Part shown: piece by piece, positions 7,728 to 62,060 of the stretch
How positions within the stretch are numbered: the first letter of the stretch is position 1
How the letters are laid out: each line of letters starts with the position of its first letter
Assembly: GCA_022749755.1 (NCBI GenBank)
Contig: CM040446.1
Span: forward strand, 399,339 to 463,338
DNA: 64,000 nt
Direction of reading: 5' to 3'
Source of the DNA: Azadirachta indica
Lineage: Eukaryota; Streptophyta; Magnoliopsida; Sapindales; Meliaceae
Program-made: the position numbers and the translations under genes
The notes under the pieces: model-generated
Databases searched by the model: none
What the model saw: the letters and a program-made list of their open reading frames with translations, nothing else
Told to the model about the DNA's origin: nothing

Positions 7728-7815
7728 TCCGACCTGCCGGATTCGAACCAGCGACCTAAGGATAACAGTTTGCCATAACTACAGTCCTCCGCTCTACCAA
7801 CTGAGCTAAGGTCGG
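7728..7815 (-). tRNA. tRNA-Tyr (GTA anticodon) with intron
   Basis: Reads on the minus strand as CCGACC, D arm TTAGCTCAGTTGGTAGAGC, anticodon arm GGAGGACTGTAG, an intron of about 15 bases (around TTATGGCAAACTG), the 3' anticodon strand ATCCTTAG, T arm GTCGCTGGTTCGAATCCGGC, and acceptor GGTCGGA. The acceptor stem pairs CCGACC with GGTCGG. The A and B boxes are intact. The intron lies one base 3' of the anticodon, the canonical position in eukaryotic nuclear tRNA-Tyr. It is an intact, presumably expressed gene; CCA is not encoded, as expected for a nuclear tRNA. Confidence 0.95.
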
Positions 7816-61018: not shown

Positions 61019-61022
61019 ACAT
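61019..61022. other. Target site duplication, left copy
   Basis: ACAT immediately before the TGTCACG start of the retrozyme; the same four bases follow its end at 62061. A 4-bp duplication is what retrozymes produce. Confidence 0.7.
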
Positions 61023-61302
61023 TGTCACGGCACGAGAAATCGCATGTTGGCTGGGTGTGCTGGGGTGTGACAACTCAAGCACACTGATGTTTCATGGTGC
61101 AAAGTCGGCTTCAGTCTCAAGGGCTATCATGTAGAGGGGACTTAGACCACCCCTGCCCGAACTGGTCGGGGACTGAAGCCGTCCTCCTGATGAGGCCAAG
61201 GTAGGCCGAAACCAGTTAAATATGCGACGGGATAACAAGGCTTACCCTCGACATGGGGGTCTACGAGGGTGCCGCACGTGCCTTTCCGCTGGGCGCGTGA
61301 CA
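61023..61302 (+). repeat. Retrozyme 5' LTR
   Basis: 280 bases, TGTCACG...CGTGACA with 7-bp terminal inverted repeats. No difference from the 3' LTR was found on reading both copies through. Confidence 0.95.
61160..61217 (+). ncRNA. Type III hammerhead ribozyme, 5' LTR copy
   Basis: 58 nt with every conserved core element. Stem III is AACTGG (61160-61165) with CCAGTT (61212-61217). The cleavage triplet is GTC, cutting after C61167. Stem I is GGGGAC (61168-61173) with GTCCTC (61181-61186), one G-U pair, closed by the 7-nt loop TGAAGCC. The core CTGATGA is at 61187-61193. Stem II is GGCC (61194-61197) with GGCC (61204-61207), loop AAGGTA. The core GAAA is at 61208-61211. The two loops are placed for the tertiary contact that speeds natural hammerheads. 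The minimal stem III is six pairs, longer than in many plant hammerheads of this class, which suggests it can cleave as a monomer. Confidence 0.95.
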
Positions 61303-61304
61303 GA

Positions 61305-61316
61305 TGGTATCAGAGC
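61305..61316 (+). other. Primer binding site of the retrozyme (tRNA-Met)
   Basis: TGGTATCAGAGC, exact complement of the 3' end of plant initiator tRNA-Met as used by many LTR retroelements. Two bases (GA) separate it from the LTR end. Confidence 0.9.
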
Positions 61317-61704
61317 AGGAACGAGAATTTCCGCAAAATCTCGCTACGTTCCTGACTCCTGTGGGAATCCACCGAGATAGCCGAGGATATTAGCCCGTAA
61401 GATTGGGCGAGGGAAAATGAGGTGTCTATTGTGTGACCCTTCGCCACGCAGCCTCGAATGTGGGCGTGCTCGCACAATGATGTGTCCTGCGGTATGGGGA
61501 TCTTCCTGGGGGGGAAGATGAGCATAGTGGTTTGAAAGGCAACCGCATAGCGCCTCATCTACGCCAAGCACTGCTACCACCGTACGTCGAGGATGGCGTG
61601 CCTGCACGACGTGGTGTTATCGTGTTCTCTTTATGGGAGTCTCCTTAGCCCGGAGGAGATGGGCGTTATGGAGTGGAGCGGCATGCAGGGTAGGACCTCG
61701 ATGG

Positions 61705-61720
61705 TCTACCAATTGAGCTG
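61705..61720 (-). other. tRNA A-box-like segment inside the retrozyme
   Basis: On the minus strand CAGCTCAATTGGTAGA closely resembles the D-arm/A box of plant tRNAs (AGCTCAGTTGGTAGA). No full tRNA fold, acceptor stem or B box was found around it. It may be a captured tRNA fragment or an antisense Pol III promoter element, or chance. Confidence 0.4.
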
Positions 61721-61768
61721 GCGAAAAATTTGAAGATGGCCGCGTGCACGAGGACGTGCACGATTTTC

Positions 61769-61780
61769 GGTGGTGGAGAA
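61769..61780 (+). other. Polypurine tract of the retrozyme
   Basis: GGTGGTGGAGAA directly before the TGTCACG start of the second LTR. Two T interrupt the purines, as in many gypsy-type tracts. Confidence 0.8.
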
Positions 61781-62060
61781 TGTCACGGCACGAGAAATCG
61801 CATGTTGGCTGGGTGTGCTGGGGTGTGACAACTCAAGCACACTGATGTTTCATGGTGCAAAGTCGGCTTCAGTCTCAAGGGCTATCATGTAGAGGGGACT
61901 TAGACCACCCCTGCCCGAACTGGTCGGGGACTGAAGCCGTCCTCCTGATGAGGCCAAGGTAGGCCGAAACCAGTTAAATATGCGACGGGATAACAAGGCT
62001 TACCCTCGACATGGGGGTCTACGAGGGTGCCGCACGTGCCTTTCCGCTGGGCGCGTGACA
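61781..62060 (+). repeat. Retrozyme 3' LTR
   Basis: 280 bases, apparently identical to 61023-61302, followed by ACAT (target duplication, 62061-62064). Confidence 0.95.
61918..61975 (+). ncRNA. Type III hammerhead ribozyme, 3' LTR copy
   Basis: Same 58-nt hammerhead as in the 5' LTR, offset by 758. Cleavage is predicted after C61925, releasing a 758-nt RNA with the 5' LTR site. Confidence 0.95.

What the first reader, a model, noticed from the sequence alone, without database searches (positions are those of the whole stretch)
61023..62060. Intact retrozyme: a miniature LTR retroelement carrying hammerhead ribozymes
The element has equal 280-bp LTRs with TGTCACG/CGTGACA ends, a tRNA-Met PBS two bases inside, a purine tract, a 4-bp ACAT target duplication, no protein, and a complete hammerhead in each LTR. 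This matches the retrozyme class of plant non-autonomous retroelements, which move through self-cleaved circular RNA. Such elements are usually missed by annotation because they have no ORF; a gene-finder reports only shadow frames here.
Basis: partly seen in the sequence, partly recalled or inferred. Interest (0 to 1): 0.95.

Follow-up and report, generated by a model that had tools for sequence, protein, structure and literature searches.

The report
Retrozyme and its chromovirus partner
The window holds a small jumping gene that carries self-cutting RNA, a known kind; relatives of it elsewhere in the same genome are fused to a larger jumping gene, which points to the machinery that may copy it.

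Summary
Observation confirmed. Window 61023-62060 is a 1038-bp LTR element: identical 280-bp LTRs, ACAT target duplication, PBS, purine-rich tract, no protein, and a type III hammerhead in each LTR (RF00008, 44.6 bits, E 3e-8, below Rfam's gathering score 48.5). Its LTR-PBS-interior junction occurs about 100 times in this genome. It is a retrozyme, a known kind.

New here: 15 independent loci (16 with one duplicated region) carry this retrozyme fused to one Ty3/gypsy chromovirus family, called RE2. In 13 of 15 the fused unit has one exact outer 4-bp target duplication, so it integrated as a single chimeric DNA. At ten loci a switch lies in the 21-bp LTR-end/PBS box, the one significant match between the two (a junction search found some of these by design; without it, 5 of 10). 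Three loci carry exactly one 758-bp retrozyme unit between RE2's LTR and PBS. Both elements prefer GC-N4-GC targets. Best reading: the retrozyme is a satellite of a chromovirus lineage, reverse-transcribed and integrated with it. In the passages I read, a Ty3-gypsy helper is only presumed. A second gypsy-like family, RE3, is also fused at several loci. Circular RNA, self-cleavage and helper activity were not tested.

The parts
61019..61022 (.). left target-site duplication ACAT, preceded by AGC
   Evidence: sequence
61023..61302 (+). 5' LTR, 280 bp
   Evidence: 100% identical to the 3' LTR
61160..61217 (+). type III hammerhead, 5' LTR; predicted cleavage 61167|61168; stem III 61160-61165/61212-61217, stem I 61168-61173/61181-61186, stem II 61194-61197/61204-61207
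   Evidence: RF00008 44.6 bits, E 3.4e-8, below gathering score; stems read from the sequence
61305..61316 (+). primer binding site TGGTATCAGAGC (initiator tRNA-Met by recall; tRNA-Met PBS is given for retrozymes in PMC4918200)
   Evidence: sequence; part of the 21-bp box shared with RE2
61303..61780 (+). non-coding internal region, 478 bp
61168..61925 (+). predicted 758-nt ribozyme-cut unit (putative circular RNA)
   Evidence: from the two predicted cleavage sites; folded as a circle
61769..61780 (+). polypurine-like tract GGTGGTGGAGAA
   Evidence: sequence; with the LTR start 17/19 like RE2's PPT/LTR start, E 0.68
61781..62060 (+). 3' LTR, 280 bp
61918..61975 (+). type III hammerhead, 3' LTR; predicted cleavage 61925|61926
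   Evidence: RF00008 44.6 bits
62061..62064 (.). right target-site duplication ACAT, followed by GCT

Best explanation
The element is a young, intact copy of a plant-type LTR retrozyme that lives as a satellite of a Ty3/gypsy chromovirus lineage, RE2. Inferred cycle: transcription, cutting by the LTR hammerheads into a 758-nt unit, circularisation, entry into the RE2-lineage particle, tRNA-primed reverse transcription that may go round the circle more than once, and integration by the RE2-lineage integrase at (A)GC-N4-GC(T) sites with 4-bp duplications. When retrozyme and RE2 templates share a particle, the reverse transcriptase sometimes switches between them, often at their common LTR-end/PBS box, and the mixed cDNA integrates as one unit. 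Shown by sequence: the anatomy, the family, the single-integration chimeras, the shared target preference, the shared LTR-end/PBS box. Inferred: cleavage, circle, particle, and which RE2 copy supplies the enzymes.
For: 1) Chimeras. Retrozyme LTR end -> PBS -> RE2 interior at 11 places; RE2 LTR end -> PBS -> retrozyme interior at 7 of 9 hits (the other 2, at 3 mismatches, are not retrozyme); reversed-pattern control 0 in both. Five more loci have other junctions. Total 16 loci; L050 and L051 have the same flanks and count once. 2) Exact outer 4-bp TSD in 13 of 15 independent loci: L029, L052, L069, L043, L015, L037, L050, L067, L054, C7:17790k, C10:7050k, C10:3653k, C11:3174k. 3) One retrozyme unit of exactly 758 bp, by junction spacing, between RE2 LTR and RE2 PBS at C6:865625/866383 (and its duplicate), C7:17790763/17790005 and C11:3178740/3177982. 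4) Target: GC before the TSD in 25 of 33 and after it in 26 of 33 retrozyme sites (expected 1.0 each, P about 1e-31 and 1e-33); 5 of 7 and 5 of 7 for RE2 (P 5e-7 each). 5) The only significant match of retrozyme to RE2 is the 21-bp LTR-end/PBS box (20/21, E 2e-4). 6) RE2 family: Gag, protease, RT, RNase H, integrase and chromodomain across its forms. 7) Array L044, four LTRs inside one TSD TGCC. 8) Two junctions within 1-2 nt of the predicted hammerhead 5' end: C19 (L037) and C9:4866064.
Against: No RNA, particle or enzyme data. Retrozyme LTR ends also run into a second gypsy-like leader, RE3, at three C1 places and a similar leader (by eye) at two more, so RE2 is not the only partner. Two of 15 chimeras lack an exact outer TSD (L023; C3:3230k, TTTT against TTGT), and C11's GATG equals the start of the retrozyme's own PBS region. 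The junction searches could find only box junctions; among the 10 independent fusions met without them, 5 switch in the box and 5 elsewhere. At C3, C7:17790k, C10:3653k, C10:7050k and C11 only ends and junctions were read. The two cleavage-site junctions came from searches aimed at that site. The circle's fold is only modestly better than shuffles (z -2.5; 67% paired against 65%). The PPT box match is not significant alone (E 0.68). The covariance score is below Rfam's cut-off.
Confidence: 0.8

Rival explanations
1. An ordinary retrozyme copy; the fusions to RE2 are nested insertions or later DNA recombination between separate insertions.
For: Nesting of gypsy elements is common (PMC6911290, abstract and passages). 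L023 and C3:3230k lack an exact outer TSD, and L023 has a piece of inverted RE2 on its left.
Against: In 13 of 15 independent chimeras one exact 4-bp TSD bounds the whole fused unit. Ectopic recombination would join different flanks. Three loci carry exactly one 758-bp unit at the LTR/PBS border, which random nesting would not give.
Confidence: 0.1
2. Helper-neutral: several gypsy families share a PBS box, and the retrozyme uses whichever is active; RE2 stands out only because it was recently abundant.
For: RE3 fusions. RE3 and RE2 Gag N-termini are related (34% over 137 aa, E 2e-21).
Against: The GC-N4-GC target was measured for RE2 but could not be for RE3 copies; both partners are gypsy-type, so the lineage-level claim survives either way.
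Confidence: 0.35
3. The templates are uncut linear transcripts or finished cDNA and the hammerhead plays no part in mobility.
For: Ordinary LTR elements need no ribozyme; chimera formation alone does not prove a circle. At CpG sites the ribozyme is no less variable than the rest of the LTR (5/604 against 29/2771, p 0.82).
Against: The 758-bp insertions need a template running from interior through the complete LTR, U5 included, into a PBS; a conventional transcript ending in R lacks that (finished cDNA does not). Overall the hammerhead is less variable than the rest of the LTR (24/5849 against 169/22124, six high-frequency sites left out; Fisher p 0.003; copies are not independent). Two junctions lie at the cleavage site.
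Confidence: 0.17

Closest known systems
Plant LTR retrozymes (Cervera et al. 2016, PMC4918200; Nicotiana benthamiana NbRZ, PMC9695139)
   Same: LTRs with type III hammerhead, tRNA-Met PBS, PPT, 4-bp TSD, no ORF, 600-1000-nt ribozyme-delimited unit, tandem copies, ribozyme paired away in the predicted circle fold, likeness to Ty3-gypsy only at the small boxes.
   Different: LTR is 280 bp (reported about 300-400). Here copies are fused to an identified chromovirus family within single insertions, and the target preference is a strong GC-N4-GC. In the parts and passages I read the helper is only presumed; for Jatropha the TSD consensus WWRR is given.
TRIM / SMART small LTR elements
   Same: Tiny non-coding LTR elements moved in trans.
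   Different: No ribozyme in the LTR (as set apart in PMC4918200); here 39 of 40 LTRs scanned in 20 loci carry one.
Ty3/gypsy chromoviruses, perhaps the Galadriel clade (RE2)
   Same: RE2 has Gag, protease, RT, RNase H, integrase and chromodomain across its forms, and 4-bp TSDs; Galadriel is reported as mostly 4-bp TSD (PMC6911290 passage).
   Different: Clade not tested by an RT tree. Many RE2 copies seen are 3.4-kb or 4.5-kb forms without RT. The one RE2 copy scanned (in L047) has no Rfam hammerhead.
Carnation CarSV retroviroid
   Same: Hammerhead circular RNA with a DNA form joined to a reverse-transcribing element, with RT template switching suggested (PMC11722881 passage).
   Different: CarSV DNA is described as extrachromosomal multimers next to a pararetrovirus; these are chromosomal, TSD-bounded insertions with an LTR retrotransposon.

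Membership tests
LTR retrozyme | two LTRs of about 300-400 bp | tested here: met
   identical LTRs, 280 bp, slightly short of the reported range
LTR retrozyme | type III hammerhead in each LTR | tested here: met
   RF00008 44.6 bits twice, E 3.4e-8, but under the gathering score 48.5; core letters intact
LTR retrozyme | 4-bp TSD | tested here: met
   ACAT here; 33 of 39 loci not fused to RE2 are exact
LTR retrozyme | tRNA-Met PBS and PPT boxes like Ty3-gypsy | tested here: met
   PBS/LTR-end box 20/21 like RE2, E 2e-4; PPT/LTR-start box 17/19, E 0.68, not significant alone; tRNA identity by recall
LTR retrozyme | no coding capacity | tested here: met
   longest frame wholly inside 87 aa
LTR retrozyme | 600-1000-nt self-cut unit, highly structured | tested here: inconclusive
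   758 nt; circular MFE -293.8, z -2.5 over 60 shuffles, 67% paired against 65%
LTR retrozyme | self-cleavage and circular RNA in tissue | not testable with these tools
   needs RNA
LTR retrozyme | multi-copy, with tandem multimers | tested here: met
   104 LTR-PBS-interior junctions at up to 2 mismatches; arrays L044, L037
Ty3/gypsy chromovirus (RE2) | gag-pol with RT, RNase H, integrase then chromodomain | tested here: met
   domains found in pieces of L062; none of the three 6-kb copies (L060-L062) has a frame over 963 aa
Galadriel clade (RE2) | RT phylogeny | not tested
   no reference RTs at hand; 4-bp TSD only

The most novel reading that the evidence does not exclude
Some fusions are working hybrid elements. 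At C7:3714k-3718k (TSD TGTA exact) and C3:3224k-3231k (TSD 3 of 4), both outer ends are retrozyme LTRs with RE2 between them: at C7 of the size of the RT-less Gag-protease-integrase form, at C3 of the size of the full 6-kb form. That would be a ribozyme-bearing element that carries its own protein genes, a step from satellite towards an autonomous retrozyme. The interiors were sized from junction positions and mostly not read.
Probability: 0.12. Interest if true: 0.88.

Novelty: new member of a known kind. Interest (0 to 1): 0.68.

Why it matters
Who copies and integrates retrozymes is left at 'presumably' or 'may be' Ty3-gypsy in the papers I looked into. TSD-bounded chimeras are genomic footprints of the two templates being copied together, and a shared, sharp target preference points to a shared integrase. 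This names a testable helper family in one genome and a way to look for helpers elsewhere: chimeras at the LTR/PBS box. It also offers a genomic trace of one-lap copying of a 758-nt unit.

Tried and rejected
Rejected: (a) a chance hammerhead: two copies at E 3e-8, and intact core in 98 of 101 fetched LTR copies. (b) Nested insertion or ectopic recombination as the main cause of the fusions: see rivals. (c) A hammerhead in RE2 itself: none in Rfam at E up to 1 in the one copy scanned. (d) C1:8439073, C10:5679042 and C10:5679763 as cleavage ends: they are a deletion between GGGGAC direct repeats, and C1:8193884, C5:6223294 and C13:5315114 are point changes at the cleavage-site C; that leaves 2 junctions of 8 places. 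(e) A tRNA in the interior: ARAGORN finds none there. (f) A 13-N hammerhead pattern was my miscount and found one chance match only. (g) Host identity was not pursued; 'plant' is inferred from the kind of elements. There is no genome-wide ribozyme census: the gapped pattern did not complete. Before the TSD count the RE2 fusions (L010, L015, L023, L029, L037, L043) were set aside; the 39 loci left include one array (L044), one partial array (L056) and one solo LTR (L057); 6 lack an exact TSD (L002, L014, L021, L022, L031, L056). L014 also lies 46 bp from a piece of RE2 interior and was not counted as a fusion. In the LTR variation counts duplicate loci were dropped (11 loci; those plus L051). 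One search stopped with an error at L043, after the table.

Full report
Observation. The window holds a 1038-bp element at 61023-62060 with two identical 280-bp LTRs, TSD ACAT, PBS TGGTATCAGAGC two bases inside the 5' LTR, and a purine-rich tract before the 3' LTR. No frame of note lies in it. Each LTR matches the Rfam type III hammerhead at 44.6 bits, E 3.4e-8, under the curated 48.5, which is why the default scan of the window shows only a tRNA. By reading, stem III is AACUGG/CCAGUU, the cleavage site is GUC, stem I GGGGAC/GUCCUC, then CUGAUGA, stem II GGCC/GGCC, GAAA. The two predicted cuts delimit 758 nt.

Family. The window lies in a 280.8-Mb, 21-contig genome. The element has 44 listed matches, a lower bound (40 of 217 candidates scored); the LTR has 355 candidates (40 scored). 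The LTR-end/PBS/interior junction occurs 104 times at up to 2 mismatches, array units and fused copies included. Among 39 loci not fused to RE2, 33 have an exact 4-bp TSD. LTR pairs differ by 0 to 8 bases of about 280 in the loci tabulated, mostly transitions. In 20 of the fetched loci, 39 of 40 LTRs score as RF00008 at 36.8-44.6 bits; 98 of 101 LTR copies keep the core letters. The 58-nt ribozyme varies less than the rest of the LTR (24/5849 against 401/22740; 24/5849 against 169/22124 without six high-frequency sites, p 0.003; at CpG sites alone no difference, p 0.82). The copies are not independent, so this is only indicative.

Arrays. At C10:1095900-1098456 (L044) four LTRs stand head to tail inside one TSD TGCC with AGC before and GCT after. 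L037 holds a partial multimer.

Chimeras. Copies without a TSD led to a second element, RE2: LTR 626 bp, TGTCACGCCCC...GCCGTGACA, PBS GTTGGTATCAGAGC, PPT GGTGGGGGAGGA. RE2 comes in forms of about 3.4, 4.5 and 6 kb. A 3.4-kb-form copy has an open 674-aa frame with Gag, protease and chromodomain; a 4.5-kb-form copy has 1043 aa with integrase domains added; pieces of the 6-kb L062 show Gag, RT, RNase H, integrase and chromodomain. A frame of 1043-1047 aa is open in 5 of the 10 copies of the 4.5-kb form examined (L064, L066, L068, L050, L046); one of 671-674 aa in 2 of the 4 of the 3.4-kb form (L045, L047); none of the three 6-kb copies exceeds 963 aa. RE2's own LTR pairs differ by 0-5 bases of 626-632 in ten pairs measured, two of them (L060, L062) duplicates by flank, so it too is young.

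Types of fusion. (i) Retrozyme LTR-interior-LTR, then RE2 PBS-interior-LTR: L029, L052, L023, C10:7050k. (ii) RE2 LTR, retrozyme interior-LTR (758 bp), RE2 PBS-interior-LTR: L050 (=L051 by identical flanks), C7:17790k; C11:3174k has this and a further RE2-to-retrozyme step. (iii) Retrozyme LTRs at both outer ends with RE2 inside: L054, C3:3230k, C10:3653k (there the RE2 3' LTR is cut short and a new retrozyme LTR follows). (iv) End-to-end or inverted joins: L043 (GA), L015 (GATGTTAC, RE2 inverted), L067 (GTATC, retrozyme inverted), L069 (GATG, part of an RE2 LTR), L037. At C7:17790k, C10:7050k, C10:3653k, C3 and C11 I read only the ends and junctions; at L054 the middle is mostly unread. Junction patterns gave 11 retrozyme-to-RE2 and 7 RE2-to-retrozyme places, with 0 for the reversed pattern. 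These patterns find box junctions only. Of ten independent fusions met without them, five switch in the box (L023, L029, L050, L052, L054) and five elsewhere (L069, L015, L037, L043, L067), so type (iv) is undercounted genome-wide.

Single integration. Exact outer TSDs: 14 of 16 loci, 13 of 15 independent. C11's TSD GATG also equals the start of the retrozyme's PBS region, so it is weaker. L023 (TTAA/GTGG) and C3 (TTTT/TTGT) fail. In one search the L029 row printed no TSD because I gave the end two bases short; one search shows ATAG on both sides. The base between LTR and PBS is T at some junctions and A at others, and the RE2 part is of the 3.4-, 4.5- or 6-kb size, so I infer several independent switches rather than one spreading hybrid.

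Why a template switch. BLAST between retrozyme and RE2 gives one significant match, the 21-bp LTR-end/PBS box (20/21, E 2e-4). The PPT/LTR-start box (17/19, E 0.68) lies at the expected place but ranks below a 12-bp chance word (E 0.17). A template that runs interior-whole LTR-PBS exists in a circle or multimer, or in finished cDNA, but not in a conventional transcript that ends in R; this is inference from the known LTR cycle.

Target. Retrozyme sites read (A)GC-N4-GC(T): GC on the left 25 of 33, on the right 26 of 33, both 19, expected 1.0 per side; AGC 17, GCT 23. Chimeras: 8 and 10 of 13 (12 RE2 fusions plus L095, listed before C10:3653k was closed). RE2: 5 and 5 of 7 (one of the seven a solo LTR in L053); L061 without TSD and the chimera L067 were left out, and L060/L062 counted once. 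Plant LTR elements are reported to have weak palindromic preferences, with Tos17 as a sharp case, and Galadriel mostly 4-bp TSDs (PMC6911290, passages).

Cleavage-site junctions. In L037 the RE2 LTR is joined to the retrozyme at element position 147; the predicted cut is 145|146. C9:4866064 has what by eye is an inverted retrozyme piece joined at the same place. Searches looked only at this site, so there is no matched control.

Second partner. The retrozyme LTR end also runs into another leader, RE3, at C1:1349914, C1:1405276 and C1:8003194 (the three share a 549-bp spacing to the next retrozyme junction and may be one event copied), and into a similar leader, by eye, at C13:4466953 and C2:6509474 (these two are not among the hits). 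L095, read in full, is retrozyme LTR, RE3 PBS/leader/gag start, then retrozyme from LTR position 111 on, with TSD AAGT. One search lists only the first 100 of 128 places, so other partners are not excluded.

Fold. The 758-nt circle folds at -293.8 kcal/mol; 60 dinucleotide shuffles average -273.4, sd 8.0, none as low. The ribozyme's 5' half pairs with an upstream LTR stretch, like the blocked state described in PMC4918200. The fraction paired is not unusual.

Literature. PMC4918200: parts 1-4 of 7 read. PMC9695139, PMC11722881, PMC7761336, PMC4918198, PMC12029980, PMC10886601, PMC6911290: passages only. The 34 papers of the library that hold the word retrozyme were seen as a listing; some searches were further searches, seen as listings. 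In what I saw, the helper is presumed to be Ty3-gypsy, and retrozyme/retrotransposon chimeras do not appear; 'chimer' has 0 hits in PMC7761336, PMC4918198, PMC12029980 and PMC10886601. Most subscription papers are not held, so absence from print is not shown.

Noticed in passing
window 7728-7815 (-): tRNA gene at 60 bits with an insert near the anticodon; ARAGORN gives no isotype. Possibly an intron-bearing tRNA-Tyr (recall).
   Followed up: no
window 61697-61724 (-): By eye the minus strand of the interior looks like a tRNA D-arm (GCCAGCTCAATTGGTAGACC), perhaps a decayed box A; ARAGORN finds no tRNA there.
   Followed up: no
L064, L066, L068, L050, L046: RT-less 4.5-kb RE2 copies keep one open frame of 1043-1047 aa (5 of 10 examined); L046's was typed as Gag, protease, integrase and chromodomain. 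A recurrent RT-deletion form that seems to spread.
   Followed up: partly
C6:864500 and C6:5784500 (L050/L051); C10:1285700 and C10:5275300 (L062/L060): Pairs of places with identical flanks around the same element: duplicated genome regions or assembly duplication.
   Followed up: no
L043 2001-2330: Inverted 318-bp piece of retrozyme (3' LTR plus PPT side) head-to-head with a nearly full retrozyme, then RE2, all in one TSD ATAT: looks like self-integration or fold-back before insertion.
   Followed up: partly
C11:14507464, C12:92880 (L101, L100): A diverged retrozyme form with CCAGGTTCGAG after the PBS.
   Followed up: no
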